Shown here piece after piece: positions 37,601 through 59,530 of a stretch of 64,000 bases of DNA (positions are counted from its first letter, which is position 1; each line of letters starts with the position of its first letter). The notes under the pieces were generated by a model. That model searched no databases and was not told the DNA's origin. It saw only the letters and a list, made by a program, of their open reading frames with translations. Position numbers and translations under genes: made by a program. Origin of the DNA: Bolinopsis microptera (Eukaryota > Ctenophora > Tentaculata > Lobata > Bolinopsidae); assembly GCF_026151205.1 (NCBI RefSeq), contig NC_087073.1:22948987-23012986 (forward strand), in the 5' to 3' direction.

Positions 37601-39228
37601 AGAGGTCGAAACTTGGTTTTTATGATGGTTTGGGATAGTCAGTACCCATTTTTATACTAAAACATGGCCCACCTACCCCGGAACATAAATCGCATACGGG
37701 GGTAAAGATTCTCAGTCTGGATTTGTATGGGATTTGACCTGGATTTCAGCTATTTTGGGATGGGCGTGGCCCCTGGGAGTGGCCTGAGTGGTTTGAGAGG
37801 TCGAAACTTGGTTTTTATGATGGTTTGGGATAGGCAGTACCCATTTTTATACTAAAACATGGGCCACCTACCCCGGAACATAAATCGCATACGGGGGTAA
37901 AGATTTTCAATCTTGATTTTACCAGGATTTCAGCTATTTTGGGATGGGCGTGGCCCCTGGGAGTGGCCTGAGTGGGTTGGGAGGTCGAAACTTGATTTTT
38001 ATGATGGTTTGGGACAGGTACTAACTATTTAAAACCCTAAACCTGTTCCAAATACCCCGGAACACAAATCGCATACAGGGGTGAAATCGCATACAAATCG
38101 CATACACAAATCAAGGAAACGTGCTCTCAAAGTCACGATATTGCCACGATATTGTCACAATATTGTCCACACCAGGAGATGTTTCCCCAAAATGTAAAGC
38201 AATGGTTTACTAAAATAATGCTTAATTTCATACAAAAAATAGTCCTCAAAAGGGAATGCAACGCAATTTGTCCTTTACAACTATCCTTTAACAGGTCAGA
38301 AAAAATAATGTTATTATCTTTTCTTTTATTTTTGCTACAATCACGCCACAACATTTGTAAAAACATAACCTAACATTGTTAGGACCTTATCAATTATTTG
38401 AAGAAATTTAAATGTGTTAAGTAAAGTTTTAATACCTGTCAATTCCATCAAGGAAGGTAAGTTGTGGAATCGCTGAAAATACTTTATCTCGATATTTTTC
38501 AACTTCAGCAATCGGACATTCGATCAAATCCAAACTTGACAGATTACTCAGCAATTTCTGAAAGATTTTATTACATTAAATTGTACAACCAAGTTTATAA
38601 AATGGATAGCTCTGAATCACAACTCAAACAAAGGTAACCGAGATAAAACACCACCAGCATTTGTTAAAAAGTTAACCCTAGTAGCAGTGTAAAGATAAAC
38701 AAACCAGTGGTTCCAGCGTAGCAACATCTTTAATCCTATTATTACAGATCTTGAGGGAGGTGAGGTTTGGGCAACTCTTCAAATACTCCAGATCCCCCGA
38801 CAACTTATTATCACTAACCTCCAACTGTAATATCAGTGAGATATATCAAACTGGTACTTTCAGAGACAACAATAAAATAACAGTTAGCACACCGGTGTCC
38901 GGGCAATATTTTATTATTTGGCGATTTCAACATAGGTAGGTTAGATCTCCAAAGTTAATTCCAGGTTAACTATTTTAGCACTGTCAATGTTTATTGTTGG
39001 CTTAATTAACTCACTATGGTCGTATAACATATAATATTCTGCGTTCTAATTTCTATTATAATTAAACGTTCCCCTACTACCTACCGATCTTAGTTTGGGG
39101 TAAGCAGGGAATCCTTTAAGAGAAGTGAGACCTATGTTGATCATGCTGAGAACCTCTAACTCCTCGTATTTATCTGTTAGTCCTGTTAGCGTGCTGGCTC
39201 TACAGTTATCTAGAAACAACTCCTTTAC
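34447..39228 (-). CDS. ANP32: ANP32-like acidic leucine-rich nuclear phosphoprotein (five exons; exon 1 not found)
   Basis: Exons on the minus strand are 39228-39085, 38824-38705, 38557-38436, 34875-34755 and 34620-34447. They join in phase to 226 codons plus TGA, near the usual family length once the short first exon is added. The order is LRR1-2 (VKELFLDNCRAS, LEVLSMINIGLTSL), LRR3-4 (LEVSDNKLSG, CPNLTSLKICNNRIKDVATL), LRR cap (KLLSNLSSLDLIECPI, VFSAIPQLTFLDGIDR), then an acidic tail starting EPDSDEDFELDEE with 12 Glu in a row, and a basic KRAKID near the C-terminus that could serve as nuclear signal. Family members bind histones and act as chromatin and phosphatase (PP2A) regulators in the nucleus. 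Exon 1 should lie upstream, to the right of 59311, but was not recognised. Confidence 0.93.
34755..34875 (-). CDS. ANP32: ANP32 exon 5 (acidic tail, poly-Glu)
   Basis: 121 nt. The acceptor is GAAATAG|GGAAGG and the donor is GACGAG|GTAAGC. It encodes EGTAEPDSDEDFELDEEGED, then DDLDS, 12 Glu (GAA plus eleven GAG codons, a pure triplet tract at 34764-34799) and DDE. An alternative acceptor CTGCAG at 34862 would break frame with exon 4. Confidence 0.9.
34876..38435 (-). other. ANP32 intron 4, 3.56 kb, mostly repeat
   Basis: The other introns are 134-260 bp. This one is swollen by the 195-bp repeat block. The ends outside the block (34876-35269 and 38111-38435) show no further feature. Confidence 0.8.
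35270..38110. repeat. ~195-bp satellite, ~10 direct then ~5 inverted copies
   Basis: The unit contains ACCCCCGTATGCGATTTATG, TTCCGGGGTAGGTGGCCCAT and CACTCAGGCCACTCCCAGG. Copies run in one orientation to about 37236 and then switch to the reverse complement at CTATCCCAATGATATGATGG. The outermost copies (35270 and 38040) are most diverged. RNA across the switch could form a very long hairpin inside the intron. Confidence 0.93.
38436..38557 (-). CDS. ANP32: ANP32 exon 4 (LRR cap)
   Basis: 122 nt. The acceptor is ATCTTTCAG and the donor is GACAG|GTATTA. It encodes KLLSNLSSLDLIECPIAEVE, then KYRDKVFSAIPQLTFLDGID. The last two bases plus the first base of exon 5 make Arg, giving the conserved LDGxDR cap. 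Confidence 0.92.
38705..38824 (-). CDS. ANP32: ANP32 exon 3 (LRR3-4)
   Basis: 120 nt, phase 0. The acceptor is GATATTACAG and the donor is CCACTG|GTTTGT. It encodes LEVSDNKLSGDLEYLKSCPN, then LTSLKICNNRIKDVATLEPL, matching the family's LELSDN...CPNLTHLNLSGN pattern. Confidence 0.92.
39085..39228 (-). CDS. ANP32: ANP32 exon 2 (LRR1-2)
   Basis: 144 nt, phase 0 at both ends. The acceptor is CTCTGCAG|GTAAAG and the donor is GATCG|GTAGGT. It encodes VKELFLDNCRASTLTGLTD, then KYEELEVLSMINIGLTSLKG and AYPKLRS. Its first 59 bases are the sequence amplified in the 69-bp array that lies directly upstream. Confidence 0.92.
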
Positions 39229-42200
39229 CTGCAGAGTATTATCTGTTAGTCCTGTTAGCGTGCTGGCTCTACAGTTATCTAGAAACAACTCCTTTACCTG
39301 CAGAGTATTATCTGTTAGTCCTGTTAGCGTGCTGGCTCTACAGTTATCTAGAAACAGCTCCTTTACCTGCAGAGTATTATCTGTTAGTCCTGTTAGCGTG
39401 CTGGCTCTACAGTTATCTAGAAACAACTCCTTTACCTGCAGAGTATTATCTGTTAGTCCTGTTAGCGTGCTGGCTCTACAGTTATCTAGAAACAACTCCT
39501 TTACCTGCAGAGTATTATCTGTTAGTCCTGTTAGCGTGCTGGCTCTACAGTTATCTAGAAACAACTCCTTTACCTGCAGAGTATTATCTGTTAGTCCTGT
39601 TAGCGTGCTGGCTCTACAGTTATCTAGAAACAGCTCCTTTACCTGCAGAGTATTATCTGTTAGTCCTGTTAGCGTGCTGGCTCTACAGTTGTCTAGAAAC
39701 AGCTCCTTTACCTGCAGAGTATTATCTGTTAGTCCTGTTAGCGTGCTGGCTCTACAGTTATCTAGAAACAACTCCTTTACCTGCAGAGTATTATCTGTTA
39801 GTCCTGTTAGCGTGCTGGCTCTACAGTTATCTAGAAACAGCTCCTTTACCTGCAGAGTATTATCTGTTAGTCCTGTTAGCGTGCTGGCTCTACAGTTATC
39901 TAGAAACAGCTCCTTTACCTGCAGAGTATTATCTGTTAGTCCTGTTAGCGTGCTGGCTCTACAGTTATCTAGAAACAGCTCCTTTACCTGCAGAGTATTA
40001 TCTGTTAGTCCTGTTAGCGTGCTGGCTCTACAGTTGTCTAGAAACAGCTCCTTTACCTGCAGAGTATTATCTGTTAGTCCTGTTAGCGTGCTGGCTCTAC
40101 AGTTATCTAGAAACAGCTCCTTTACCTGCAGAGTATTATCTGTTAGTCCTGTTAGCGTGCTGGCTCTACAGTTATCTAGAAACAGCTCCTTTACCTGCAG
40201 AGTATTATCTGTTAGTCCTGTTAGCGTGCTGGCTCTACAGTTGTCTAGAAACAGCTCCTTTACCTGCAGAGTATTTATCTGTTAGTCCTGTTAGCGTGCT
40301 GGCTCTACAGTTATCTAGAAACAACTCCTTTACCTGCAGAGTATTATCTGTTAGTCCTGTTAGCGTGCTGGCTCTACAGTTATCTAGAAACAGCTCCTTT
40401 ACCTGCAGAGTATTATCTGTTAGTCCTGTTAGCGTGCTGGCTCTACATTTATCTAGAAACAGCTCCTTTACCTGCAGAGTATTATCTGTTAGTCCTGTTA
40501 GCGTGCTGGCTCTACATTTATCTAGAAACAGCTCCTTTACCTGCAGAGTATTATCTGTTAGTCCTGTTAGCGTGCTGGCTCTACAGTTATCTAGAAACAG
40601 CTCCTTTACCTGCAGAGTATTATCTGTTAGTCCTGTTAGCGTGCTGGCTCTACATTTATCTAGAAACAGCTCCTTTACCTGCAGAGTATTATCTGTTAGT
40701 CCTGTTAGCGTGCTGGCTCTACAGTTATCTAGAAACAGCTCCTTTACCTGCAGAGTATTATCTGTAAGTCCTGTTAGCGTGCTGGCTCTACAGTTGTCTA
40801 GAAACAACTCCTTTACCTGCAGAGTATTATCTGTAAGTCCTGTTAGCGTGCTGGCTCTACAGTTATCTAGAAACAGCTCCTTTACCTGCAGAGTATTATC
40901 TGTTAGTCCTGTTAGCGTGCTGGCTCTACAGTTATCTAGAAACAGCTCCTTTACCTGCAGAGTATTATCTGTTAGTCCTGTTAGCGTGCTGGCTCTACAG
41001 TTATCTAGAAACAGCTCCTTTACCTGCAGAGTATTATCTGTTAGTCCTGTTAGCGTGCTGGCTCTACAGTTATCTAGAAACAGCTCCTTTACCTGCAGAG
41101 TATTATCTGTTAGTCCTGTTAGCGTGCTGGCTCTACAGTTATCTAGAAACAGCTCCTTTACCTGCAGAGTATTATCTGTTAGTCCTGTTAGCGTGCTGGC
41201 TCTACAGTTATCTAGAAACAGCTCCTTTACCTGCAGAGTATTATCTGTTAGTCCTGTTAGCGTGCTGGCTCTACAGTTATCTAGAAACAGCTCCTTTACC
41301 TGCAGAGTATTATCTGTTAGTCCTGTTAGCGTGCTGGCTCTACAGTTGTCTAGAAACAACTCCTTTACCTGCAGAGTATTATCTGTTAGTCCTGTTAGCG
41401 TGCTGGCTCTACAGTTATCTAGAAACAGCTCCTTTACCTGCAGAGTATTTATCTGTTAGTCCTGTTAGCGTGCTGGCTCTACAGTTGTCTAGAAACAACT
41501 CCTTTACCTGCAGAGTATTTATCTGTTAGTCCTGTTAGCGTGCTGGCTCTACAGTTGTCTAGAAACAACTCCTTTACCTGCAGAGTATTATCTGTTAGTC
41601 CTGTTAGCGTGCTGGCTCTACAGTTATCTAGAAACAGCTCCTTTACCTGCAGAGTATTATCTGTTAGTCCTGTTAGCGTGCTGGCTCTACAGTTATCTAG
41701 AAACAGCTCCTTTACCTGCAGAGTATTATCTGTTAGTCCTGTTAGCGTGCTGGCTCTACAGTTATCTAGAAACAGCTCCTTTACCTGCAGAGTATTATCT
41801 GTTAGTCCTGTTAGCGTGCTGGCTCTACAGTTGTCTAGAAACAACTCCTTTACCTGCAGAGTATTATCTGTTAGTCCTGTTAGCGTGCTGGCTCTACAGT
41901 TATCTAGAAACAGCTTCTTTACCTGCAGAGTATTTATCTGTTAGTCCTGTTAGCGTGCTGGCTCTACAGTTGTCTAGAAACAACTCCTTTACCTGCAGAG
42001 TATTATCTGTTAGTCCTGTTAGCGTGATGGCTCTACAGTTATCTAGAAACAGCTCCTTTACCTGCAGAGTATTATCTGTTAGTCCTGTTAGCGTGCTGGC
42101 TCTACAGTTGTCTAGAAACAACTCCTTTACCTGCAGAGTATTATCTGTTAGTCCTGTTAGCGTGCTGGCTCTACAGTTATCTAGAAACAGCTCCTTTACC

Positions 42201-45200
42201 TGCAGAGTATTATCTGTTAGTCCTGTTAGCGTGCTGGCTCTACAGTTGTCTAGAAACAACTCCTTTACCTGCAGAGTATTTATCTGTTAGTCCTGTTAGC
42301 GTGCTGGCTCTACAGTTATCTAGAAACAGCTCCTTTACCTGCAGAGTATTTATCTGTTAGTCCTGTTAGCGTGCTGGCTCTACAGTTATCTAGAAACAAC
42401 TCCTTCACCTGCAGAGTATTATCTGTTAGTCCTGTTAGCGTGCTGGCTCTACAGTTATCTAGAAACAGCTCCTTTACCTGCAGAGTATTATCTGTTAGTC
42501 CTGTTAGCGTGCTGGCTCTACATGTATCTAGAAACAGCTCCTTTACCTGCAGAGTATTATCTGTTAGTCCTGTTAGCGTGCTGGCTCTACAGTTATCTAG
42601 AAACAGCTCCTTTACCTGCAGAGTATTATCTGTTAGTCCTGTTAGCGTGCTGGCTCTACAGTTATCTAGAAACAGCTCCTTTACCTGCAGAGTATTATCT
42701 GTTAGTCCTGTTAGCGTGCTGGCTCTACAGTTGTCTAGAAACAACTCCTTTACCTGCAGAGTATTATCTGTTAGTCCTGTTAGCGTGCTGGCTCTACAGT
42801 TATCTAGAAACAGCTCCTTTACCTGCAGAGTATTATCTGTTAGTCCTGTTAGCGTGCTGGCTCTACAGTTATCTAGAAACAACTCCTTCACCTGCAGAGT
42901 ATTATCTGTTAGTCCTGTTAGCGTGCTGGCTCTACAGTTATCTAGAAACAGCTCCTTTACCTGCAGAGTATTATCTGTTAGTCCTGTTAGCGTGCTGGCT
43001 CTACAGTTGTCTAGAAACAGCTCCTTTACCTGCAGAGTATTATCTGTTAGTCCTGTTAGCGTGCTGGCTCTACAGTTATCTAGAAACAGCTCCTTTACCT
43101 GCAGAGTATTATCTGTTAGTCCTGTTAGCGTGCTGGCTCTACAGTTATCTAGAAACAGCTCCTTTACCTGCAGAGTATTATCTGTTAGTCCTGTTAGCGT
43201 GCTGGCTCTACAGTTATCTAGAAACAGCTCCTTTACCTGCAGAGTATTATCTGTTAGTCCTGTTAGCGTGCTGGCTCTACAGTTGTCTAGAAACAGCTCC
43301 TTTACCTGCAGAGTATTATCTGTTAGTCCTGTTAGCGTGCTGGCTCTACAGTTATCTAGAAACAGCTCCTTTACCTGCAGAGTATTATCTGTTAGTCCTG
43401 TTAGCGTGCTGGCTCTACAGTTATCTAGAAACAGCTCCTTTACCTGCAGAGTATTATCTGTTAGTCCTGTTAGCGTGCTGGCTCTACAGTTATCTAGAAA
43501 CAGCTCCTTTACCTGCAGAGTATTATCTGTTAGTCCTGTTAGCGTGCTGGCTCTACAGTTGTCTAGAAACAGCTCCTTTACCTGCAGAGTATTATCTGTT
43601 AGTCCTGTTAGCGTGCTGGCTCTACAGTTATCTAGAAACAGCTCCTTTACCTGCAGAGTATTATCTGTTAGTCCTGTTAGCGTGCTGGCTCTACAGTTGT
43701 CTAGAAACAGCTCCTTTACCTGCAGAGTATTATCTGTTAGTCCTGTTAGCGTGCTGGCTCTACAGTTGTCTAGAAACAGCTCCTTTACCTGCAGAGTATT
43801 ATCTGTTAGTCCTGTTAGCGTGCTGGCTCTACAGTTATCTAGAAACAGCTCCTTTACCTGCAGAGTATTATCTGTTAGTCCTGTTAGCGTGCTGGCTCTA
43901 CAGTTATCTAGAAACAGCTCCTTTACCTGCAGAGTATTATCTGTTAGTCCTGTTAGCGTGCTGGCTCTACAGTTATCTAGAAACAGCTCCTTTACCTGCA
44001 GAGTATTATCTGTTAGTCCTGTTAGCGTGCTGGCTCTACAGTTATCTAGAAACAGCTCCTTTACCTGCAGAGTATTATCTGTTAGTCCTGTTAGCGTGCT
44101 GGCTCTACAGTTATCTAGAAACAGCTCCTTTACCTGCAGAGTATTATCTGTTAGTCCTGTTAGCGTGCTGGCTCTACAGTTGTCTAGAAACAGCTCCTTT
44201 ACCTGCAGAGTATTATCTGTTAGTCCTGTTAGCGTGCTGGCTCTACAGTTATCTAGAAACAGCTCCTTTACCTGCAGAGTATTATCTGTTAGTCCTGTTA
44301 GCGTGCTGGCTCTACAGTTGTCTAGAAACAGCTCCTTTACCTGCAGAGTATTATCTGTTAGTCCTGTTAGCGTGCTGGCTCTACAGTTATCTAGAAACAA
44401 CTCCTTTACCTGCAGAGTATTATCTGTTAGTCCTGTTAGCGTGCTGGCTCTACAGTTATCTAGAAACAGCTCCTTTACCTGCAGAGTATTATCTGTTAGT
44501 CCTGTTAGCGTGCTGGCTCTACATTTATCTAGAAACAGCTCCTTTACCTGCAGAGTATTATCTGTTAGTCCTGTTAGCGTGCTGGCTCTACAGTTGTCTA
44601 GAAACAGCTCCTTTACCTGCAGAGTATTATCTGTTAGTCCTGTTAGCGTGCTGGCTCTACAGTTATCTAGAAACAGCTCCTTTACCTGCAGAGTATTATC
44701 TGTTAGTCCTGTTAGCGTGCTGGCTCTACAGTTATCTAGAAACAGCTCCTTTACCTGCAGAGTATTATCTGTTAGTCCTGTTAGCGTGCTGGCTCTACAG
44801 TTATCTAGAAACAGCTCCTTTACCTGCAGAGTATTATCTGTTAGTCCTGTTAGCGTGCTGGCTCTACAGTTATCTAGAAACAGCTCCTTTACCTGCAGAG
44901 TATTATCTGTTAGTCCTGTTAGCGTGCTGGCTCTACAGTTATCTAGAAACAGCTCCTTTACCTGCAGAGTATTATCTGTTAGTCCTGTTAGCGTGCTGGC
45001 TCTACATTTATCTAGAAACAGCTCCTTTACCTGCAGAGTATTATCTGTTAGTCCTGTTAGCGTGCTGGCTCTACAGTTATCTAGAAACAGCTCCTTTACC
45101 TGCAGAGTATTATCTGTTAGTCCTGTTAGCGTGCTGGCTCTACATTTATCTAGAAACAGCTCCTTTACCTGCAGAGTATTATCTGTTAGTCCTGTTAGCG

Positions 45201-48200
45201 TGCTGGCTCTACAGTTATCTAGAAACAGCTCCTTTACCTGCAGAGTATTATCTGTTAGTCCTGTTAGCGTGCTGGCTCTACAGTTATCTAGAAACAGCTC
45301 CTTTACCTGCAGAGTATTATCTGTTAGTCCTGTTAGCGTGCTGGCTCTACAGTTATCTAGAAACAGCTCCTTTACCTGCAGAGTATTATCTGTTAGTCCT
45401 GTTAGCGTGCTGGCTCTACATTTATCTAGAAACAGCTCCTTTACCTGCAGAGTATTATCTGTTAGTCCTGTTAGCGTGCTGGCTCTACAGTTATCTAGAA
45501 ACAGCTCCTTTACCTGCAGAGTATTATCTGTTAGTCCTGTTAGCGTGCTGGCTCTACAGTTATCTAGAAACAGCTCCTTTACCTGCAGAGTATTATCTGT
45601 TAGTCCTGTTAGCGTGCTGGCTCTACAGTTATCTAGAAACAGCTCCTTTACCTGCAGAGTATTATCTGTTAGTCCTGTTAGCGTGCTGGCTCTACAGTTG
45701 TCTAGAAACAGCTCCTTTACCTGCAGAGTATTATCTGTTAGTCCTGTTAGCGTGCTGGCTCTACAGTTGTCTAGAAACAGCTCTTTTACCTGCAGAGTAT
45801 TATCTGTTAGTCCTGTTAGCGTGCTGGCTCTACATTTATCTAGAAACAACTCCTTTACCTGCAGAGTATTATCTGTTAGTCCTGTTAGCGTGCTGGCTCT
45901 ACAGTTGTCTAGAAACAGCTCCTTTACCTGCAGAGTATTATCTGTTAGTCCTGTTAGCGTGCTGGCTCTACAGTTATCTAGAAACAACTCCTTTACCTGC
46001 AGAGTATTATCTGTTAGTCCTGTTAGCGTGCTGGCTCTACAGTTGTCTAGAAACAGCTCCTTTACCTGCAGAGTATTATCTGTTAGTCCTGTTAGCGTGC
46101 TGGCTCTACAGTTATCTAGAAACAGCTCCTTTACCTGCAGAGTATTATCTGTTAGTCCTGTTAGCGTGCTGGCTCTACAGTTATCTAGAAACAGCTCCTT
46201 TACCTGCAGAGTATTATCTGTTAGTCCTGTTAGCGTGCTGGCTCTACAGTTGTCTAGAAACAGCTCCTTTACCTGCAGAGTATTATCTGTTAGTCCTGTT
46301 AGCGTGCTGGCTCTACAGTTATCTAGAAACAACTCCTTTACCTGCAGAGTATTATCTGTTAGTCCTGTTAGCGTGCTGGCTCTACAGTTATCTAGAAACA
46401 GCTCCTTTACCTGCAGAGTATTATCTGTTAGTCCTGTTAGCGTGCTGGCTCTACAGTTGTCTAGAAACAGCTCCTTTACCTGCAGAGTATTATCTGTTAG
46501 TCCTGTTAGCGTGCTGGCTCTACAGTTATCTAGAAACAGCTCCTTTACCTGCAGAGTATTATCTGTTAGTCCTGTTAGCGTGCTGGCTCTACAGTTATCT
46601 AGAAACAGCTCCTTTACCTGCAGAGTATTATCTGTTAGTCCTGTTAGCGTGCTGGCTCTACAGTTGTCTAGAAACAGCTCCTTTACCTGCAGAGTATTAT
46701 CTGTTAGTCCTGTTAGCGTGCTGGCTCTACAGTTATCTAGAAACAACTCCTTTACCTGCAGAGTATTATCTGTTAGTCCTGTTAGCGTGCTGGCTCTACA
46801 GTTATCTAGAAACAGCTCCTTTACCTGCAGAGTGTTATCTGTTAGTCCTGTTAGCGTGCTGGCTCTACAGTTATCTAGAAACAGCTCCTTTACCTGCAGA
46901 GTATTATCTGTTAGTCCTGTTAGCGTGCTGGCTCTACAGTTGTCTAGAAACAGCTCCTTTACCTGCAGAGTATTATCTGTTAGTCCTGTTAGCGTGCTGG
47001 CTCTACAGTTATCTAGAAACAGCTCCTTTACCTGCAGAGTATTATCTGTTAGTCCTGTTAGCGTGCTGGCTCTACAGTTATCTAGAAACAGCTCCTTTAC
47101 CTGCAGAGTATTATCTGTTAGTCCTGTTAGCGTGCTGGCTCTACAGTTATCTAGAAACAGCTCCTTTACCTGCAGAGTGTTATCTGTTAGTCCTGTTAGC
47201 GTGCTGGCTCTACAGTTATCTAGAAACAGCTCTTTTACCTGCAGAGTATTATCTGTTAGTCCTGTTAGCGTGCTGGCTCTACATTTATCTAGAAACAGCT
47301 CCTTTACCTGCAGAGTATTATCTGTTAGTCCTGTTAGCGTGCTGGCTCTACATTTATCTAGAAACAGCTCCTTTACCTGCAGAGTATTATCTGTTAGTCC
47401 TGTTAGCGTGCTGGCTCTACAGTTGTCTAGAAACAACTCCTTTACCTGCAGAGTATTATCTGTTAGTCCTGTTAGCGTGCTGGCTCTACAGTTATCTAGA
47501 AACAGCTCCTTTACCTACAGAGTGTTATCTGTTAGTCCTGTTAGCGTGCTGGCTCTACAGTTATCTAGAAACAGCTCCTTTACCTGCAGAGTATTATCTG
47601 TTAGTCCTGTTAGCGTGCTGGCTCTACAGTTATCTAGAAACAGCTCCTTTACCTGCAGAGTATTATCTGTTAGTCCTGTTAGCGTGCTGGCTCTACAGTT
47701 ATCTAGAAACAGCTCCTTTACCTGCAGAGTATTATCTGTTAGTCCTGTTAGCGTGCTGGCTCTACATTTATCTAGAAACAGCTCCTTTACCTGCAGAGTA
47801 TTATCTGTTAGTCCTGTTAGCGTGCTGGCTCTACATTTATCTAGAAACAGCTCCTTTACCTGCAGAGTATTATCTGTTAGTCCTGTTAGCGTGCTGGCTC
47901 TACATTTATCTAGAAACAGCTCCTTTACCTGCAGAGTATTATCTGTTAGTCCTGTTAGCGTGCTGGCTCTACAGTTATCTAGAAACAGCTCCTTTACCTG
48001 CAGAGTATTATCTGTTAGTCCTGTTAGCGTGCTGGCTCTACAGTTATCTAGAAACAGCTCCTTTACCTGCAGAGTATTATCTGTTAGTCCTGTTAGCGTG
48101 CTGGCTCTACAGTTATCTAGAAACAGCTCCTTTACCTGCAGAGTATTATCTGTTAGTCCTGTTAGCGTGCTGGCTCTACAGTTATCTAGAAACAGCTCCT

Positions 48201-51200
48201 TTACCTGCAGAGTATTATCTGTTAGTCCTGTTAGCGTGCTGGCTCTACAGTTATCTAGAAACAGCTCCTTTACCTGCAGAGTATTATCTGTTAGTCCTGT
48301 TAGCGTGCTGGCTCTACAGTTATCTAGAAACAGCTCCTTTACCTGCAGAGTATTATCTGTTAGTCCTGTTAGCGTGCTGGCTCTACAGTTGTCTAGAAAC
48401 AGCTCCTTTACCTGCAGAGTATTATCTGTTAGTCCTGTTAGCGTGCTGGCTCTACAGTTATCTAGAAACAACTCCTTTACCTGCAGAGTATTATCTGTTA
48501 GTCCTGTTAGCGTGCTGGCTCTACAGTTGTCTAGAAACAGCTCCTTTACCTGCAGAGTATTATCTGTTAGTCCTGTTAGCGTGCTGGCTCTACAGTTATC
48601 TAGAAACAGCTCCTTTACCTGCAGAGTATTATCTGTTAGTCCTGTTAGCGTGCTGGCTCTACAGTTATCTAGAAACAGCTCCTTTACCTGCAGAGTATTA
48701 TCTGTTAGTCCTGTTAGCGTGCTGGCTCTACAGTTATCTAGAAACAGCTCCTTTACCTGCAGAGTATTATCTGTTAGTCCTGTTAGCGTGCTGGCTCTAC
48801 AGTTGTCTAGAAACAGCTCCTTTACCTGCAGAGTATTATCTGTTAGTCCTGTTAGCGTGCTGGCTCTACAGTTGTCTAGAAACAGCTCTTTTACCTGCAG
48901 AGTATTATCTGTTAGTCCTGTTAGCGTGCTGGCTCTACATTTATCTAGAAACAGCTCCTTTACCTGCAGAGTATTATCTGTTAGTCCTGTTAGCGTGCTG
49001 GCTCTACATTTATCTAGAAACAGCTCCTTTACCTGCAGAGTATTATCTGTTAGTCCTGTTAGCGTGCTGGCTCTACAGTTGTCTAGAAACAGCTCCTTTA
49101 CCTGCAGAGTATTATCTGTTAGTCCTGTTAGCGTGCTGGCTCTACAGTTGTCTAGAAACAGCTCCTTTACCTGCAGAGTATTATCTGTTAGTCCTGTTAG
49201 CGTGCTGGCTCTACAGTTGTCTAGAAACAGCTCCTTTACCTGCAGAGTATTATCTGTTAGTCCTGTTAGCGTGCTGGCTCTACAGTTGTCTAGAAACAAC
49301 TCCTTTACCTGCAGAGTATTATCTGTTAGTCCTGTTAGCGTGCTGGCTCTACAGTTGTCTAGAAACAGCTCCTTTACCTGCAGAGTATTATCTGTTAGTC
49401 CTGTTAGCGTGCTGGCTCTACAGTTATCTAGAAACAGCTCCTTTACCTGCAGAGTATTATCTGTTAGTCCTGTTAGCGTGCTGGCTCTACAGTTATCTAG
49501 AAACAGCTCCTTTACCTGCAGAGTATTATCTGTTAGTCCTGTTAGCGTGCTGGCTCTACAGTTATCTAGAAACAGCTCCTTTACCTGCAGAGTATTATCT
49601 GTTAGTCCTGTTAGCGTGCTGGCTCTACAGTTATCTAGAAACAGCTCCTTTACCTGCAGAGTATTATCTGTTAGTCCTGTTAGCGTGCTGGCTCTACAGT
49701 TATCTAGAAACAGCTCCTTTACCTGCAGAGTATTATCTGTTAGTCCTGTTAGCGTGCTGGCTCTACAGTTATCTAGAAACAGCTCCTTTACCTGCAGAGT
49801 ATTATCTGTTAGTCCTGTTAGCGTGCTGGCTCTACATTTATCTAGAAACAGCTCCTTTACCTGCAGAGTATTATCTGTTAGTCCTGTTAGCGTGCTGGCT
49901 CTACATTTATCTAGAAACAGCTCCTTTACCTGCAGAGTATTATCTGTTAGTCCTGTTAGCGTGCTGGCTCTACAGTTATCTAGAAACAGCTCCTTTACCT
50001 GCAGAGTATTATCTGTTAGTCCTGTTAGCGTGCTGGCTCTACAGTTATCTAGAAACAGCTCCTTTACCTGCAGAGTATTATCTGTTAGTCCTGTTAGCGT
50101 GCTGGCTCTACAGTTATCTAGAAACAGCTCCTTTACCTGCAGAGTATTATCTGTTAGTCCTGTTAGCGTGCTGGCTCTACATTTATCTAGAAACAGCTCC
50201 TTTACCTGCAGAGTATTATCTGTTAGTCCTGTTAGCGTGCTGGCTCTACAGTTGTCTAGAAACAGCTCCTTTACCTGCAGAGTATTATCTGTTAGTCCTG
50301 TTAGCGTGCTGGCTCTACAGTTATCTAGAAACAGCTCCTTTACCTGCAGAGTATTATCTGTTAGTCCTGTTAGCGTGCTGGCTCTACAGTTGTCTAGAAA
50401 CAGCTCCTTTACCTGCAGAGTATTATCTGTTAGTCCTGTTAGCGTGCTGGCTCTACAGTTATCTAGAAACAGCTCCTTTACCTGCAGAGTATTATCTGTT
50501 AGTCCTGTTAGCGTGCTGGCTCTACAGTTATCTAGAAACAGCTCCTTTACCTGCAGAGTATTATCTGTTAGTCCTGTTAGCGTGCTGGCTCTACATTTAT
50601 CTAGAAACAGCTCCTTTACCTGCAGAGTATTATCTGTTAGTCCTGTTAGCGTGCTGGCTCTACATTTATCTAGAAACAGCTCCTTTACCTGCAGAGTATT
50701 ATCTGTTAGTCCTGTTAGCGTGCTGGCTCTACATTTATCTAGAAACAGCTCCTTTACCTGCAGAGTATTATCTGTTAGTCCTGTTAGCGTGCTGGCTCTA
50801 CATTTATCTAGAAACAGCTCCTTTACCTGCAGAGTATTATCTGTTAGTCCTGTTAGCGTGCTGGCTCTACAGTTATCTAGAAACAGCTCCTTTACCTGCA
50901 GAGTATTATCTGTTAGTCCTGTTAGCGTGCTGGCTCTACATTTATCTAGAAACAGCTCCTTTACCTGCAGAGTATTATCTGTTAGTCCTGTTAGCGTGCT
51001 GGCTCTACATTTATCTAGAAACAGCTCCTTTACCTGCAGAGTATTATCTGTTAGTCCTGTTAGCGTGCTGGCTCTACAGTTATCTAGAAACAGCTCCTTT
51101 ACCTGCAGAGTATTATCTGTTAGTCCTGTTAGCGTGCTGGCTCTACATTTATCTAGAAACAGCTCCTTTACCTGCAGAGTATTATCTGTTAGTCCTGTTA

Positions 51201-54200
51201 GCGTGCTGGCTCTACAGTTGTCTAGAAACAGCTCCTTTACCTGCAGAGTATTATCTGTTAGTCCTGTTAGCGTGCTGGCTCTACAGTTATCTAGAAACAG
51301 CTCCTTTACCTGCAGAGTATTATCTGTTAGTCCTGTTAGCGTGCTGGCTCTACAGTTGTCTAGAAACAGCTCCTTTACCTGCAGAGTATTATCTGTTAGT
51401 CCTGTTAGCGTGCTGGCTCTACAGTTATCTAGAAACAGCTCCTTTACCTGCAGAGTATTATCTGTTAGTCCTGTTAGCGTGCTGGCTCTACAGTTGTCTA
51501 GAAACAGCTCCTTTACCTGCAGAGTATTATCTGTTAGTCCTGTTAGCGTGCTGGCTCTACATTTATCTAGAAACAGCTCCTTTACCTGCAGAGTATTATC
51601 TGTTAGTCCTGTTAGCGTGCTGGCTCTACATTTATCTAGAAACAGCTCCTTTACCTGCAGAGTATTATCTGTTAGTCCTGTTAGCGTGCTGGCTCTACAT
51701 TTATCTAGAAACAGCTCCTTTACCTGCAGAGTATTATCTGTTAGTCCTGTTAGCGTGCTGGCTCTACATTTATCTAGAAACAGCTCCTTTACCTGCAGAG
51801 TATTATCTGTTAGTCCTGTTAGCGTGCTGGCTCTACAGTTGTCTAGAAACAGCTCCTTTACCTGCAGAGTATTATCTGTTAGTCCTGTTAGCGTGCTGGC
51901 TCTACAGTTGTCTAGAAACAACTCCTTTACCTGCAGAGTATTATCTGTTAGTCCTGTTAGCGTGCTGGCTCTACAGTTATCTAGAAACAGCTCCTTTACC
52001 TGCAGAGTATTATCTGTTAGTCCTGTTAGCGTGCTGGCTCTACATTTATCTAGAAACAGCTCCTTTACCTGCAGAGTATTATCTGTTAGTCCTGTTAGCG
52101 TGCTGGCTCTGCAGTTATCTAGAAACAGCTCCTTTACCTGCAGAGTATTATCTGTTAGTCCTGTTAGCGTGCTGGCTCTACATTTATCTAGAAACAGCTC
52201 CTTTACCTGCAGAGTATTATCTGTTAGTCCTGTTAGCGTGCTGGCTCTACAGTTGTCTAGAAACAGCTCCTTTACCTGCAGAGTATTATCTGTTAGTCCT
52301 GTTAGCGTGCTGGCTCTACAGTTATCTAGAAACAACTCCTTTACCTGCAGAGTATTATCTGTTAGTCCTGTTAGCGTGCTGGCTCTACAGTTGTCTAGAA
52401 ACAGCTCCTTTATCTGCAGAGTATTATCTGTTAGTCCTGTTAGCGTGCTGGCTCTACAGTTGTCTAGAAACAGCTCCTTTACCTGCAGAGTATTATCTGT
52501 TAGTCCTGTTAGCGTGCTGGCTCTACAGTTATCTAGAAACAGCTCCTTTACCTGCAGAGTATTATCTGTTAGTCCTGTTAGCGTGCTGGCTCTACAGTTA
52601 TCTAGAAACAGCTCCTTTACCTGCAGAGTATTATCTGTTAGTCCTGTTAGCGTGCTGGCTCTACAGTTATCTAGAAACAACTCCTTTACCTGCAGAGTAT
52701 TATCTGTTAGTCCTGTTAGCGTGCTGGCTCTACAGTTATCTAGAAACAGCTCCTTTACCTGCAGAGTATTATCTGTTAGTCCTGTTAGCGTGCTGGCTCT
52801 ACAGTTATCTAGAAACAGCTCCTTTACCTGCAGAGTATTATCTGTTAGTCCTGTTAGCGTGCTGGCTCTACAGTTGTCTAGAAACAGCTCCTTTACCTGC
52901 AGAGTATTATCTGTTAGTCCTGTTAGCGTGCTGGCTCTACAGTTATCTAGAAACAGCTCCTTTACCTGCAGAGTATTATCTGTTAGTCCTGTTAGCGTGC
53001 TGGCTCTACAGTTATCTAGAAACAACTCCTTTACCTGCAGAGTATTATCTGTTAGTCCTGTTAGCGTGCTGGCTCTACAGTTGTCTAGAAACAGCTCCTT
53101 TACCTGCAGAGTATTATCTGTTAGTCCTGTTAGCGTGCTGGCTCTACATGTATCTAGAAACAGCTCCTTTACCTGCAGAGTATTATCTGTTAGTCCTGTT
53201 AGCGTGCTGGCTCTACAGTTGTCTAGAAACAGCTCCTTTACCTGCAGAGTATTATCTGTTAGTCCTGTTAGCGTGCTGGCTCTACAGTTGTCTAGAAACA
53301 GCTCCTTTACCTGCAGAGTATTATCTGTTAGTCCTGTTAGCGTGCTGGCTCTACAGTTATCTAGAAACAACTCCTTTACCTGCAGAGTATTATCTGTTAG
53401 TCCTGTTAGCGTGCTGGCTCTACAGTTGTCTAGAAACAGCTCCTTTACCTGCAGAGTATTATCTGTTAGTCCTGTTAGCGTGCTGGCTCTACAGTTGTCT
53501 AGAAACAGCTCCTTTACCTGCAGAGTATTATCTGTTAGTCCTGTTAGCGTGCTGGCTCTACAGTTATCTAGAAACAACTCCTTTACCTGCAGAGTATTAT
53601 CTGTTAGTCCTGTTAGCGTGCTGGCTCTACATTTATCTAGAAACAGCTCCTTTACCTGCAGAGTATTATCTGTTAGTCCTGTTAGCGTGCTGGCTCTACA
53701 GTTATCTAGAAACAACTCCTTTACCTGCAGAGTATTATCTGTTAGTCCTGTTAGCGTGCTGGCTCTACAGTTATCTAGAAACAGCTCCTTTACCTGCAGA
53801 GTATTATCTGTTAGTCCTGTTAGCGTGCTGGCTCTACATTTATCTAGAAACAGCTCCTTTACCTGCAGAGTATTATCTGTTAGTCCTGTTAGCGTGCTGG
53901 CTCTACAGTTATCTAGAAACAGCTCCTTTACCTGCAGAGTATTATCTGTTAGTCCTGTTAGCGTGCTGGCTCTACAGTTATCTAGAAACAGCTCCTTTAC
54001 CTGCAGAGTATTATCTGTTAGTCCTGTTAGCGTGCTGGCTCTACAGTTATCTAGAAACAGCTCCTTTACCTGCAGAGTATTATCTGTTAGTCCTGTTAGC
54101 GTGCTGGCTCTACATTTATCTAGAAACAGCTCCTTTACCTGCAGAGTATTATCTGTTAGTCCTGTTAGCGTGCTGGCTCTACAGTTATCTAGAAACAGCT

Positions 54201-56760
54201 CCTTTACCTGCAGAGTATTATCTGTTAGTCCTGTTAGCGTGCTGGCTCTACAGTTATCTAGAAACAGCTCCTTTACCTGCAGAGTATTATCTGTTAGTCC
54301 TGTTAGCGTGCTGGCTCTACAGTTGTCTAGAAACAGCTCCTTTACCTGCAGAGTATTATCTGTTAGTCCTGTTAGCGTGCTGGCTCTACAGTTGTCTAGA
54401 AACAACTCCTTTACCTGCAGAGTATTATCTGTTAGTCCTGTTAGCGTGCTGGCTCTACAGTTATCTAGAAACAGCTCCTTTACCTGCAGAGTATTATCTG
54501 TTAGTCCTGTTAGCGTGCTGGCTCTACAGTTATCTAGAAACAGCTCCTTTACCTGCAGAGTATTATCTGTTAGTCCTGTTAGCGTGCTGGCTCTACAGTT
54601 ATCTAGAAACAGCTCCTTTACCTGCAGAGTATTATCTGTTAGTCCTGTTAGCGTGCTGGCTCTACAGTTATCTAGAAACAACTCCTTTACCTGCAGAGTA
54701 TTATCTGTTAGTCCTGTTAGCGTGCTGGCTCTACAGTTATCTAGAAACAACTCCTTTACCTGCAGAGTATTATCTGTTAGTCCTGTTAGCGTGCTGGCTC
54801 TACATTTATCTAGAAACAGCTCCTTTACCTGCAGAGTATTATCTGTTAGTCCTGTTAGCGTGCTGGCTCTACATTTATCTAGAAACAGCTCCTTTACCTG
54901 CAGAGTATTATCTGTTAGTCCTGTTAGCGTGCTGGCTCTACATTTATCTAGAAACAGCTCCTTTACCTGCAGAGTATTATCTGTTAGTCCTGTTAGCGTG
55001 CTGGCTCTACAGTTGTCTAGAAACAGCTCCTTTACCTGCAGAGTATTATCTGTTAGTCCTGTTAGCGTGCTGGCTCTACAGTTATCTAGAAACAGCTCCT
55101 TTACCTGCAGAGTATTATCTGTTAGTCCTGTTAGCGTGCTGGCTCTACAGTTATCTAGAAACAGCTCCTTTACCTGCAGAGTATTATCTGTTAGTCCTGT
55201 TAGCGTGCTGGCTCTACAGTTGTTTAGAAACAACTCCTTTACCTGCAGAGTATTATATGTTAGTCCTGTTAGCGTGCTGGCTCTACAGTTATCTAGAAAC
55301 AGCTCCTTTACCTGCAGAGTATTATCTGTTAGTCCTGTTAGCGTGCTGGCTCTACAGTTGTCTAGAAACAGCTCCTTTACCTGCAGAGTATTATCTGTTA
55401 GTCCTGTTAGCGTGCTGGCTCTACAGTTATCTAGAAACAGCTCCTTTACCTGCAGAGTATTATCTGTTAGTCCTGTTAGCGTGCTGGCTCTACAGTTATC
55501 TAGAAACAGCTCCTTTACCTGCAGAGTATTATCTGTTAGTCCTGTTAGCGTGCTGGCTCTACAGTTATCTAGAAACAGCTCCTTTACCTGCAGAGTATTA
55601 TCTGTTAGTCCTGTTAGCGTGCTGGCTCTACAGTTATCTAGAAACAGCTCCTTTACCTGCAGAGTATTATCTGTTAGTCCTGTTAGCGTGCTGGCTCTAC
55701 AGTTATCTAGAAACAGCTCCTTTACCTGCAGAGTATTATCTGTTAGTCCTGTTAGCGTGCTGGCTCTACAGTTATCTAGAAACAGCTCCTTTACCTGCAG
55801 AGTATTATCTGTTAGTCCTGTTAGCGTGCTGGCTCTACAGTTGTCTAGAAACAGCTCCTTTACCTGCAGAGTATTATCTGTTAGTCCTGTTAGCGTGCTG
55901 GCTCTACAGTTATCTAGAAACAGCTCCTTTACCTGCAGAGTATTATCTGTTAGTCCTGTTAGCGTGCTGGCTCTACAGTTATCTAGAAACAGCTCCTTTA
56001 CCTGCAGAGTATTATCTGTTAGTCCTGTTAGCGTGCTGGCTCTACAGTTGTCTAGAAACAGCTCCTTTACCTGCAGAGTATTATCTGTTAGTCCTGTTAG
56101 CGTGCTGGCTCTACAGTTATCTAGAAACAGCTCCTTTACCTGCAGAGTATTTATCTGTTAGTCCTGTTAGCGTGCTGGCTCTACATTTATCTAGAAACAG
56201 CTCCTTTACCTGCAGAGTATTATCTGTTAGTCCTGTTAGCGTGCTGGCTCTACAGTTATCTAGAAACAACTCCTTTACCTGCAGAGTATTATCTGTTAGT
56301 CCTGTTAGCGTGCTGGCTCTACAGTTATCTAGAAACAGCTCCTTTACCTGCAGAGTATTATCTGTTAGTCCTGTTAGCGTGCTGGCTCTACAGTTGTCTA
56401 GAAACAGCTCCTTTACCTGCAGAGTATTATCTGTTAGTCCTGTTAGCGTGCTGGCTCTACAGTTATCTAGAAACAGCTCCTTTACCTGCAGAGTATTATC
56501 TGTTAGTCCTGTTAGCGTGCTGGCTCTACAGTTATCTAGAAACAGCTCCTTTACCTGCAGAGTATTATCTGTTAGTCCTGTTAGCGTGCTGGCTCTACAG
56601 TTATCTAGAAACAGCTCCTTTACCTGCAGAGTATTATCTGTTAGTCCTGTTAGCGTGCTGGCTCTACAGTTATCTAGAAACAACTCCTTTACCTGCAGAG
56701 TATTATCTGTTAGTCCTGTTAGCGTGCTGGCTCTACAGTTATCTAGAAACAGCTCCTTTA
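39160..56760 (-). repeat. 69-bp array of ANP32 exon 2 acceptor + 5' half, left block, ~255 units
   Basis: On the minus strand the unit is TACTCTGCAG (intron end) plus exon bases GTAAAGGAG through GACTAACAGATAA. Most differences are GAT/GAC and CTG/TTG (silent in the LRR frame) or AAC/AAA (Asn/Lys); Thr appears at 42524 and 53151. Seven units are 70 bp with GATAAATAC (+ strand GTATTTATC near 40272, 41449, 41520, 41932, 42289, 42350 and 56151). A C-to-T change near 47516 makes TAG. These breaks mean the whole block cannot encode a single LRR protein. Open frames of 4,596 and 4,757 codons on the + strand are shadows of a stop-free unit. Confidence 0.95.
56753..56760. repeat. Target-site duplication, left copy
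   Basis: CTCCTTTA, repeated at 57368-57375 on the other side of the inserted element. Confidence 0.85.
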
Positions 56761-57367
56761 CCCAGGTCAATATCATTACATATTTCGCATATTAATATAC
56801 GACATATTTCGAAGGAAAACCACGACATAACAAAATTATTGTTAAAATTTGTTACAAATTAATTTAATTTCAGAAATAGTTGATTGCAGAATTCCTTTGA
56901 AAAAAATTTTTTTCGAAAAATTTTCTTGAAAAAATTTTGCGAATATTTTGATATTTTCATGACATCCGAAATCATGACATCCGAAATCTTGACATCATGT
57001 CATGATTTACAAATATCTGAGAAAGTTCACGCATATTTTTACCTGTATTTTACAGGCAAAACTTGACATGAAAAACGTCCCCGCATATTTGATAAGATGA
57101 GCGCATATTTGACATGGATCTAAATATCTGACGGGGGATATCATATAAAAAATATCCTTGTGTTTGAAAAATTATATCAAAAAAGTTAAGAATTTTTTAA
57201 TAAATTTTTCTAGGACTCGCCTGTAGCAGGCTTTGTCCCCCTGGATCGGGCTCTGCCAATTTGGATCATTGTGGGGCCCAAAAATGCCCCATCGGGTGAT
57301 AAAAACCATGACATATTTCACCCAGATATAATAATATACGACATATTTTTAATGATATTGACCTGGG
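56761..57367. mobile_element. 607-bp non-autonomous DNA transposon (MITE-like), 8-bp TSD
   Basis: It begins CCCAGGTCAATATCATTA and ends with the exact reverse complement (18-bp terminal inverted repeats). Removing the element plus one CTCCTTTA restores an intact 69-bp unit. No transposase frame is present. The interior is AT-rich with repeated CATATTT and GACATCCGAAATC strings. An 8-bp duplication is typical of hAT, P and Merlin-type elements. The TSD does not fully fit the hAT preference, so the superfamily is left open. Confidence 0.88.
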
Positions 57368-59310
57368 CTCCTTTACCTGCAGAGTATTATCTGTTAGTCC
57401 TGTTAGCGTGCTGGCTCTACAGTTATCTAGAAACAGCTCCTTTACCTGCAGAGTATTATCTGTTAGTCCTGTTAGCGTGCTGGCTCTACAGTTGTCTAGA
57501 AACAACTCCTTTACCTGCAGAGTATTATCTGTTAGTCCTGTTAGCGTGCTGGCTCTACAGTTGTCTAGAAACAGCTCCTTTACCTGCAGAGTATTATCTG
57601 TTAGTCCTGTTAGCGTGCTGGCTCTACAGTTATCTAGAAACAGCTCCTTTACCTGCAGAGTATTATCTGTTAGTCCTGTTAGCGTGCTGGCTCTACAGTT
57701 ATCTAGAAACAGCTCCTTTACCTGCAGAGTATTATCTGTTAGTCCTGTTAGCGTGCTGGCTCTACAGTTATCTAGAAACAGCTCCTTTACCTGCAGAGTA
57801 TTATCTGTTAGTCCTGTTAGCGTGCTGGCTCTACAGTTATCTAGAAACAGCTCCTTTACCTGCAGAGTATTATCTGTTAGTCCTGTTAGCGTGCTGGCTC
57901 TACAGTTATCTAGAAACAGCTCCTTTACCTGCAGAGTATTATCTGTTAGTCCTGTTAGCGTGCTGGCTCTACAGTTATCTAGAAACAGCTCCTTTACCTG
58001 CAGAGTATTATCTGTTAGTCCTGTTAGCGTGCTGGCTCTACATTTATCTAGAAACAGCTCCTTTACCTGCAGAGTATTATCTGTTAGTCCTGTTAGCGTG
58101 CTGGCTCTACATTTATCTAGAAACAACTCCTTTACCTGCAGAGTATTATCTGTTAGTCCTGTTAGCGTGCTGGCTCTACAGTTATCTAGAAACAACTCCT
58201 TTACCTGCAGAGTATTATCTGTTAGTCCTGTTAGCGTGCTGGCTCTACAGTTATCTAGAAACAGCTCCTTTACCTGCAGAGTATTATCTGTTAGTCCTGT
58301 TAGCGTGCTGGCTCTACATTTATCTAGAAACAGCTCCTTTACCTGCAGAGTATTATCTGTTAGTCCTGTTAGCGTGCTGGCTCTACAGTTATCTAGAAAC
58401 AGCTCCTTTACCTGCAGAGTATTATCTGTTAGTCCTGTTAGCGTGCTGGCTCTACAGTTATCTAGAAACAACTCCTTTACCTGCAGAGTATTATCTGTTA
58501 GTCCTGTTAGCGTGCTGGCTCTACAGTTATCTAGAAACAGCTCCTTTACCTGCAGAGTATTATCTGTTAGTCCTGTTAGCGTGCTGGCTCTACAGTTATC
58601 TAGAAACAGCTCCTTTACCTGCAGAGTATTATCTGTTAGTCCTGTTAGCGTGCTGGCTCTACAGTTATCTAGAAACAGCTCCTTTACCTGCAGAGTATTA
58701 TCCTGTTAGCGTGCTGGCTCTACAGTTATCTAGAAACAGCTCCTTTACCTGCAGAGTGTTATCTGTTAGTCCTGTTAGCGTGCTGGCTCTACAGTTATCT
58801 AGAAACAACTCCTTTACCTGCAGAGTATTATCTGTTAGTCCTGTTAGCGTGCTGGCTCTACAGTTGTCTAGAAACAGCTCCTTTACCTGCAGAGTATTAT
58901 CTGTTAGTCCTGTTAGCGTGCTGGCTCTACAGTTATCTAGAAACAGCTCCTTTACCTGCAGAGTATTATCTGTTAGTCCTGTTAGCGTGCTGGCTCTACA
59001 GTTATCTAGAAACAGCTCCTTTACCTGCAGAGTATTATCTGTTAGTCCTGTTAGCGTGCTGGCTCTACAGTTATCTAGAAACAGCTCCTTTACCTGCAGA
59101 GTATTATCTGTTAGTCCTGTTAGCGTGCTGGCTCTACAGTTGTCTAGAAACAGCTCCTTTACCTGCAGAGTGTTATCTGTTAGTCCTGTTAGCGTGCTGG
59201 CTCTACAGTTATCTAGAAACAACTCCTTTACCTGCAGAGTATTATCTGTTAGTCCTGTTAGCGTGCTGGCTCTACAGTTATCTAGAAACAGCTCCTTTAC
59301 CTGCAGAGTA
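57368..59310 (-). repeat. 69-bp array, right block, ~28 units, with native upstream edge
   Basis: Same unit as the left block. One unit near 58700 is 8 bp short. The right edge joins what looks like the original intron: the minus strand reads CAGTATAACATACTCTGCAG, then GTAAAGG. This edge therefore preserves the ancestral 3' splice site. Confidence 0.93.
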
Positions 59311-59530
59311 TGTTATACTGCATGTTCATGTGGAAACAAATCACTACATCTTCTTAATTTATAAATGTAATAAACTAATTTAAACTAATTACAACACTAC
59401 AAATCTATTACATTTATTGAGGACGTTACAGAAGGTGTTAATTTAATGTAGTTGGAGGAGTCCTAACTCTCCTCACGTCCGAAAATGGCGTTTCTCTTGT
59501 ATCAAATATGTAGCATTCTATGATACCCAC
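59311..59530. other. Unique sequence right of the array
   Basis: Presumed 3' part of ANP32 intron 1 on the minus strand. No exon was recognised. Confidence 0.4.

What the first reader, a model, noticed from the sequence alone, without database searches (positions are those of the whole stretch)
39160..59310. ~280 tandem candidate recursive splice sites upstream of ANP32 exon 2
On the minus strand every unit has GACTAAC (branch-point-like), about 14 nt later CTCTGCAG (acceptor) and immediately GTAAAG (donor-like). CAG|GTAAAG with a branch point upstream is the layout of a recursive or zero-length-exon splice site. A 20-kb intron made of such sites could be removed in steps. Alternatively, different acceptors could include variable numbers of 23-residue LRR-like repeats. 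Between exon 2 and the first frame-breaking unit near 40272 about 15 units are in frame, so isoforms with 0-15 extra repeats are possible.
Basis: partly seen in the sequence, partly recalled or inferred. Interest (0 to 1): 0.9.

Follow-up and report, generated by a model that had tools for sequence, protein, structure and literature searches.

The report
Giant repeat of an intron-exon junction
In a comb-jelly gene, a short piece of DNA spanning the end of one intron and the start of the next exon has been copied about 280 times in a row, so the splicing machinery faces hundreds of near-identical start points for one exon; how it chooses among them is an open, testable question.

Summary
The array is real: 283 unit boundaries on the minus strand, 69-bp unit, directly upstream of exon 2 of a complete ANP32 gene in a ctenophore genome (perhaps Bolinopsis microptera; not proven). 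The 'branch point' GACTAAC is coding sequence (GLT) and the 'donor' GTAAAG is exon 2's first two codons (V-K). This is the anatomy of amphioxus 'mirages', known there with few copies; here there are 283 boundaries, in another phylum. Exon 2's own acceptor is itself a repeat unit, so any nearby branch point must lie in a repeat. The sites score within the range of this genome's real sites. Recursive splicing is possible but unproven: 69 nt is shorter than all 18 introns measured (minimum 121), splice-critical positions show no depletion of variants, and no RNA was available. If all downstream units were kept in mRNA, 16 of 283 acceptors would give an open protein. Best reading: a tolerated giant mirage whose mRNA mostly keeps one copy, by exon definition, re-splicing or both. 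Two smaller candidate donor-side junction arrays occur in the same genome. New variant of a known kind.

The parts
60172..60234 (-). ANP32 exon 1 coding part (MSNLSMEARIELETRDLKPKE), donor GAG|gtttgt
   Evidence: identical residues in Mnemiopsis leidyi protein P0002
39229..60171 (-). present intron 1, 20,943 nt, of which the array is 20,072; inferred ancestral intron 1 was 60171-59301, 871 nt
   Evidence: inference for the ancestral state
59301..59360 (-). unduplicated 3' part of the ancestral intron 1, ending TATAACATACTCTGCAG at the first acceptor
39229..59300 (-). mirage array: units GTAAAGGAG...GGACTAACAGATAATACTCTGCAG (exon 2 nt 1-59 plus about 10 nt of intron 1 end); 282 units, 283 boundaries counting exon 2's own start
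39229..39297 (-). repeat unit next to exon 2 (one of 22 identical 69-bp units); supplies the best nearby branch-point-like site (GACTAAC) and the acceptor CTCTGCAG of true exon 2
39085..39228 (-). true ANP32 exon 2 (VKELFLDNCRASTLTGLTDKYEELE...), 144 nt, donor TCG|gtaggt
38705..38824 (-). ANP32 exon 3
38436..38557 (-). ANP32 exon 4
34755..34875 (-). ANP32 exon 5 (acidic)
34447..34620 (-). ANP32 exon 6 (acidic, stop TGA)
40264..40333 (-). first of seven 70-bp units (others start at 41507, 41577, 41992, 42338, 42408, 56209); extra A breaks the frame; probable founder form
56761..57367 (-). 607-bp inserted element; terminal inverted repeats identical over the first 18 bases (CCCAGGTCAATATCATTA; 28 of the first 40), 8-bp target duplication TAAAGGAG: hAT-like MITE inside the array
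   Evidence: class name is inference from TSD length and ends
14468..15689 (+). second, donor-side candidate junction array in the window: 23-bp unit CAGG|GTGAGTACTTGTTGAGTAG x53 at the 3' end of an apparent exon of an alpha-mannosidase-like gene
   Evidence: similarity marginal; one search found no Pfam family

Best explanation
The array is a giant 'mirage': a minisatellite born from a tandem duplication across the intron 1/exon 2 junction of ANP32 (about 10 nt of intron end plus about 59 nt of exon 2), then amplified to 282 units in front of exon 2 (shown from sequence). Because the duplicated piece begins with the exon codons GTAAAG, ends with the real acceptor CTCTGCAG, and holds GACTAAC (codons of GLT), nearly every copy looks like both a 3' splice site and a 5' splice site, and is itself a GT...AG stretch (shown). 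True exon 2 is preceded by repeats for 20 kb, so if it is spliced correctly its branch point lies in a repeat and other copies should be recognisable too (deduced). Most likely mature mRNA keeps one copy, because the acceptor nearest the real exon 2 donor is favoured by exon definition. Transcripts that first join an upstream copy are probably rescued by re-splicing from CAG|GTAAAG over two or more units (138 nt is an ordinary intron size here), or carry frameshifts and are lost (inferred).
For: Unit = exon 2 nt 1-59 + intron 1 end; both breakpoints readable. Complete ANP32 gene. The eight best database relatives, P0001-P0008, carry this stretch once, except P0006, which lacks it. Known precedent: amphioxus BflGb6 duplicates the 3' end of an intron plus the 5' part of exon 2 with AG/GT in many units, and RT-PCR suggests regular splicing is not disturbed (PMC3087553, passages; further amphioxus cases in PMC3902484, passages). 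Array sites against 18 introns of this genome: U1 pairing stronger than 13 of 18; acceptor score 5.1, above 9 of 18, and above the ancestral acceptor (1.2); branch-point match 6 of 7 against at most 5 of 7 in this gene's other introns. Retaining everything downstream leaves 16 of 283 acceptors open, so selection of the last copy or re-splicing is needed. No significant excess of synonymous variants (7 of 15 types, 5.0 expected, p 0.19) and no depletion at splice motifs: no sign that the copies themselves are under selection.
Against: No RNA evidence of any kind was available. Exon definition in this species is assumed. Donor profile score of the array (5.1) is in the lower third of real donors (above 5 of 18), and the polypyrimidine content is low (7 of 15; real 5-14). 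The introns were picked with help of donor pairing and pyrimidine content, so these comparisons are mildly circular. Array length rests on one assembly. The confidence given covers origin and mostly single-copy mRNA; the rivals about the mode of splicing overlap with it, so the figures do not sum to 1.
Confidence: 0.72

Rival explanations
1. Recursive splicing in earnest: the intron is removed stepwise from the 5' end, each CAG|GTAAAG restoring a donor for the next step, the array being maintained for that purpose.
For: Layout present at 267 of 283 boundaries; donor pairs with U1 better than 13 of 18 real donors, branch-point match the best among this gene's introns. The result is frame-neutral whatever the step, since units start GT and end AG.
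Against: Motifs are explained by origin alone. No depletion of variants at splice positions (3 of 15 types, 2.6 expected). 69-nt steps are below all 18 introns measured, minimum 121. Fly recursive segments are nearly all above 1 kb and their sites are conserved (PMC6110457, passages). Donor lacks G at +5.
Confidence: 0.15
2. A protein-size ladder: upstream acceptors are used and kept, giving ANP32 with 1-15 extra 23-residue pieces at its first LRR.
For: The 15 units nearest exon 2 are in frame and open; predicted proteins 270-592 aa. 273 of 282 units have the in-frame 69-bp length although the 70-bp form looks like the founder.
Against: Synonymous excess not significant (p 0.19). The eight best relatives carry the stretch at most once. 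A database search with a 374-aa run of repeats gave no protein at E 0.001 or better among 7,990 scored candidates. Each of the other 267 acceptors gives a broken frame if all downstream is kept.
Confidence: 0.1
3. Inert minisatellite: ordinary one-step splicing to 39228, upstream sites silenced (structure, bound proteins, weak pyrimidine tract); nothing special happens.
For: Amphioxus mirages reportedly leave splicing undisturbed (PMC3087553, PMC3902484, passages). Low pyrimidine content, 7 of 15.
Against: The unit upstream of exon 2 is one of 22 identical 69-bp units, so whatever silences the others must spare the last; the ancestral intron end is 20 kb away.
Confidence: 0.3
4. Assembly artefact: the array is not there or is grossly mis-sized.
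For: A second copy of the gene's 3' part 543 kb away on the same contig breaks off after about 10 units at a run of N and carries small indels, so the assembly is imperfect here.
Against: That separately placed copy shows the same order of variants in 10 of 10 copies compared, exon 2 included. Variants are interspersed along the array, and a transposon sits inside one unit.
Confidence: 0.05

Closest known systems
[quoted passage not shown] PGBD5 likened to them)
   [quoted passage not shown] AG/GT in units; tandem and nearly identical; unit size within the range reported for Adh3 (10-72 bp). Seen as passages of PMC3087553 and PMC3902484.
   Different: Ctenophore, not cephalochordate; 283 boundaries against 6 and 3 units in the two BflGb6 haplotypes; in-frame unit length; branch-point-like motif supplied by duplicated exon codons. 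Copy numbers of the Adh3 and TnC cases were not seen.
[quoted passage not shown] fission-yeast genes with multiple 24-bp duplicates; vertebrate ATP2A1; potato RdRp)
   Same: Duplication of AG|GT gives each copy a GT start and an AG end, so removing it leaves the peptide unchanged; the potato case also duplicated an existing intron-exon structure. Seen as passages of PMC4974935.
   Different: Duplication at an existing splice site of an existing intron, and hundreds of copies; no proof that any copy is spliced as an intron of its own.
Recursive splicing / ratchet points / zero-length exons (Drosophila, vertebrates)
   Same: Juxtaposed acceptor and donor, CAG|GTAA, with a branch-point-like motif upstream (passages of PMC2773006, PMC8605326).
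   Different: Consensus is cag|gtaagt, here cag|gtaaag; steps of 69 nt against nearly all above 1 kb in flies; no sign of selective conservation within the array; origin by duplication of a coding exon's start.

Membership tests
Mirage minisatellite | Repeat unit spans an intron-exon boundary of a real gene | tested here: met
   Unit = exon 2 nt 1-59 + about 10 nt intron end of a complete ANP32 gene
Mirage minisatellite | Tandem, near-identical units, homogenised | tested here: met
   273 of 282 units exactly 69 bp, 21 sequence types among them, 135 identical to consensus
Mirage minisatellite | AG/GT splice signals in units | tested here: met
   282 of 283 CAG (1 TAG), 277 of 283 GTAAAG
Mirage minisatellite | Regular splicing not disturbed | not testable with these tools
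   No RNA data held
Mirage minisatellite | Length instability between haplotypes | tested here: inconclusive
   Second copy breaks off at an assembly gap after about 10 units
Recursive splice site (ratchet point) | Acceptor directly followed by donor | tested here: met
   CTCTGCAG directly followed by GTAAAG at 276 places; 277 of 283 boundaries have GTAAAG
Recursive splice site (ratchet point) | Strong pyrimidine tract and donor | tested here: inconclusive
   Pyrimidines 7 of 15 (18 real acceptors 5-14); donor profile score above 5 of 18, U1 pairing above 13 of 18
Recursive splice site (ratchet point) | Sites conserved by selection | tested here: not met
   3 of 15 variant types fall in 12 splice-critical positions, 2.6 expected; within-array test only, no second species
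Recursive splice site (ratchet point) | Spacing compatible with an intron of this genome | tested here: not met
   69 nt against minimum 121 in 18 introns measured; two units (138 nt) would fit
Recursive splice site (ratchet point) | Intermediate junctions or lariats | not testable with these tools
   No RNA data held
Intron gain by tandem duplication | Duplicated segment contains AGGT so that each copy is GT...AG | tested here: met
Intron gain by tandem duplication | A copy is spliced out as an intron | not testable with these tools
   No RNA data held
ANP32 | N-terminal LRR domain and acidic tail | tested here: met
   PDB ANP32A E 8.9e-51; Pfam LRR_4 and LRR_9 above cut-off; acidic exons 5-6

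The most novel reading that the evidence does not exclude
The array is a self-erasing intron: because nearly every unit begins with the exon's own GT and ends with the exon's own acceptor, any acceptor may be joined first and the surplus copies are then cut out by re-splicing from the restored CAG|GTAAAG, mostly in steps of two or more units. Arbitrary growth of the array, even with frameshifting units, is then invisible in the mRNA. This would be the densest run of recursive sites known (to my recollection; not searched) and would explain how junction minisatellites are tolerated at all.
Probability: 0.25. Interest if true: 0.85.

Novelty: new variant of a known kind. Interest (0 to 1): 0.6.

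Why it matters
A spliceosome facing 283 near-identical acceptors, one of which starts an exon of a conserved gene, is a natural experiment on how 3' splice sites are chosen (order of synthesis, nearness to the next donor, or trial and re-splicing). It carries the mirage phenomenon, described in amphioxus, to a ctenophore and to hundreds of copies. It also shows how coding sequence can come to look like branch point and donor, the step that intron gain by duplication needs.

Tried and rejected
Coding selection on the repeats: unproven (synonymous types 7 of 15, p 0.19). Long open frames as evidence of coding: rejected, since two plus-strand frames are open for 4,596 and 4,757 aa against at most 2,572 on the minus strand; homogenised repeats explain both. 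Higher-order repeats: none detected (best lag 0.381 against a shuffled 95th percentile of 0.396). Rfam: no family in the window. Database proteins made of the repeat: none at E 0.001 among 7,990 scored candidates with a 374-aa query; this says little, because the species' own ANP32 was not among the best hits either (highest identity listed 76%), and proteins outside 0.55-1.75 times the query length are not searched. Independent second gene copy as comparative evidence: rejected, same variant order in 10 of 10 copies compared and a gap beside it, so probably an assembly duplicate. A gradient of the TTG variant with distance from exon 2: none among 69-bp units (p 0.93). A first microhomology count printed nothing because of an off-by-one; redone. 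Enrichment of junction arrays in this genome: not tested; tandem repeats of all periods cover 13.8% of a 200-kb sample, so some overlap with splice sites is expected. Alpha-mannosidase confirmation by Pfam with a longer exon join failed (no family); a shorter join gave Glyco_hydro_38C below cut-off (E 0.062), and the longer join gave the fly enzyme in the PDB at E 0.019.
Full report
What is there. On the minus strand, between exon 1 (60234-60172) and exon 2 (39228-39085) of a gene coding for a 247-aa ANP32 protein, lies a 20-kb tandem array with a 69-bp unit. There are 283 unit boundaries; 282 have CAG and 277 have GTAAAG, 280 stretches carry GACTAAC, and 267 carry all three under a strict pattern.

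Where it comes from. Reading the unit against both flanks shows that it is neither intronic filler nor an array of designed splice sites. It is the junction itself: exon 2 from its first base to about base 59, followed by about the last 10 bases of intron 1. GTAAAG is the start of exon 2 (V-K); GACTAAC lies in GGA CTA ACA, the G-L-T of the GLTD motif; CTCTGCAG is the true intron end. The unduplicated intron end survives just beyond the far end of the array (59360-59301), so intron 1 was probably 871 nt before. Seven units have 70 bp. The 70-bp junction can be made by joining exon and intron at a shared ATAC (4 bases), the 69-bp junction only at one shared base, and 5 of 7 70-bp units carry the TTG of true exon 2 against 39 of 273 69-bp units (Fisher p 0.0013). 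I infer that the founder was 70 bp, out of frame, and that an in-frame 69-bp version took over. Selection on frame or chance could both explain this; against a simple age gradient, TTG shows no trend with distance from exon 2 among 69-bp units (p 0.93). A 607-bp hAT-like element with identical 18-base ends and an 8-bp target duplication sits in one unit, so that unit existed before the insertion.

Which organism. The genome has 264.65 Mb in 232 contigs. The best named hit is Mnemiopsis leidyi at 66% identity; unnamed hits reach 74-76% (best 120 of 267 listed). The Bolinopsis microptera paper reports about 254 Mbp and 13 chromosome-scale scaffolds holding 97.23% of bases (PMC10232365, passages), which fits, but the species is not proven.

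Can the sites work? I measured 14 introns of CCT chaperonin genes by frame-consistent joins and four of ANP32. Of 19 exon pairs, 5 with poor joins were left out. Of the 14 kept, one is the second-ranked join and two differ from the profile length by 3-4 residues, and ranking used donor pairing and pyrimidine content, which biases the comparison a little. Introns read through inside one profile match were not measured; the surplus length of four such matches suggests about 111-192 nt. Against the 18, the array donor pairs with U1 better than 13 and has a profile score above 5; its acceptor scores above 9; its pyrimidine count is 7 of 15 (real 5-14). The ancestral acceptor scores lower (1.2 against 5.1). 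Its branch-point match is 6 of 7, the best among this gene's introns. So the units should be visible to the spliceosome. The 18 introns run from 121 to 3560 nt: 69 nt is too short by that yardstick, while two units (138 nt) is an ordinary length.

The logical point. True exon 2 has repeat units upstream of it for 20 kb (with one inserted element). If ANP32 mRNA is made correctly, the branch point and acceptor for exon 2 are those of a repeat unit, one of 22 identical ones. If all that follows an acceptor were kept, 16 of 283 acceptors would give an open protein (247-592 aa) and one of 283 the ordinary one. Something must favour the last copy or remove surplus copies. Exon definition by the donor at 39084 would do the first, re-splicing from CAG|GTAAAG the second. 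Both are inferences; no RNA data were available.

Tests against function in the repeats. Among 69-bp units, synonymous variant types are 7 of 15 against 5.0 expected (p 0.19), and splice-critical positions take 3 of 15 variant types against 2.6 expected. So there is no sign that copies are kept for coding or for splicing, though 15 types give little power; likeness among copies is enough to explain the preserved motifs. Plus-strand frames are even longer than minus-strand ones. No higher-order repeat was detected.

What is known. [quoted passage not shown] Adh and TnC are further cases and PGBD5 is likened to them (PMC3902484, passages). The original Adh report (Canestro and others 2002) was seen as a reference only and is not held. 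The wider model is intron gain by duplication of AGGT segments, which includes fission-yeast genes with multiple 24-bp duplicates (PMC4974935, passages). My paper searches listed no junction minisatellite called a mirage outside amphioxus; I saw listings only, in a partial library, and one search was insensitive (it returned nothing, not even the amphioxus globin paper).

Not alone in this genome. A 23-bp array at 14468-15689 of the window starts at the donor of an apparent exon ending ...[14 protein letters not shown], and the next apparent exon follows on its far side; the joined peptide resembles alpha-mannosidase II only weakly (PDB E 0.019; Pfam E 0.062, below cut-off; a longer join gave no Pfam family). 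In a 200-kb sample (20 stretches of 10 kb that I placed on five contigs) a 28-bp array in L023, 8102-8988, repeats the last 22 nt of an apparent exon plus GTAAGT; that exon matches the activin receptor domain above Pfam's cut-off (E 1.1e-4). I looked at the flanks of only four arrays: these two, one in L035 and one at 6366-9561, for the latter two of which I recognised no exon boundary by eye. Tandem repeats cover 13.8% of the sample, so some such coincidences are expected; enrichment was not tested.

Verdict. A real, striking object whose origin is explained: a giant mirage in a ctenophore, a new variant of a known kind. Recursive use is the interesting untested possibility, not a finding.

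Noticed in passing
14468-15689: Donor-side junction array: 23-bp unit with GGTGAGT x53 at the end of an apparent exon of an alpha-mannosidase-like gene; in-window second candidate mirage (similarity marginal).
   Followed up: partly
L023 8102-8988 (G000:C1 near 13.008 Mb): Donor-side junction array: 28-bp unit GTTGGGTACGGTGAACCACCTG|GTAAGT, about 30 copies, at the end of an activin-receptor-domain exon; an apparent membrane-spanning exon follows.
   Followed up: partly
G000:C2:22438000-22446000 (L009): Second copy of the ANP32 3' part and about 10 array units 543 kb away on the same contig, with small indels and a run of N: probably an assembly duplicate or unpurged haplotig.
   Followed up: yes
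56761-57367: 607-bp hAT-like MITE with CCCAGGTCAATATCATTA ends and 8-bp target duplication, inserted in one array unit.
   Followed up: partly
35374-38082: About 195-bp tandem repeats in both orientations in intron 4 of ANP32.
   Followed up: no
6366-9561; 10640-12714; 12830-13269; 59531-59849: Further long minisatellites (31 bp x103, 15 bp x132, 41 bp x11, 9 bp x35); the last lies in intron 1 of ANP32 just upstream of the array.
   Followed up: no
39170-59311, unit positions 21 and 24: The GAC variant (unit position 21) and the AAA variant (position 24) never occur in the same unit, although each is common.
   Followed up: no
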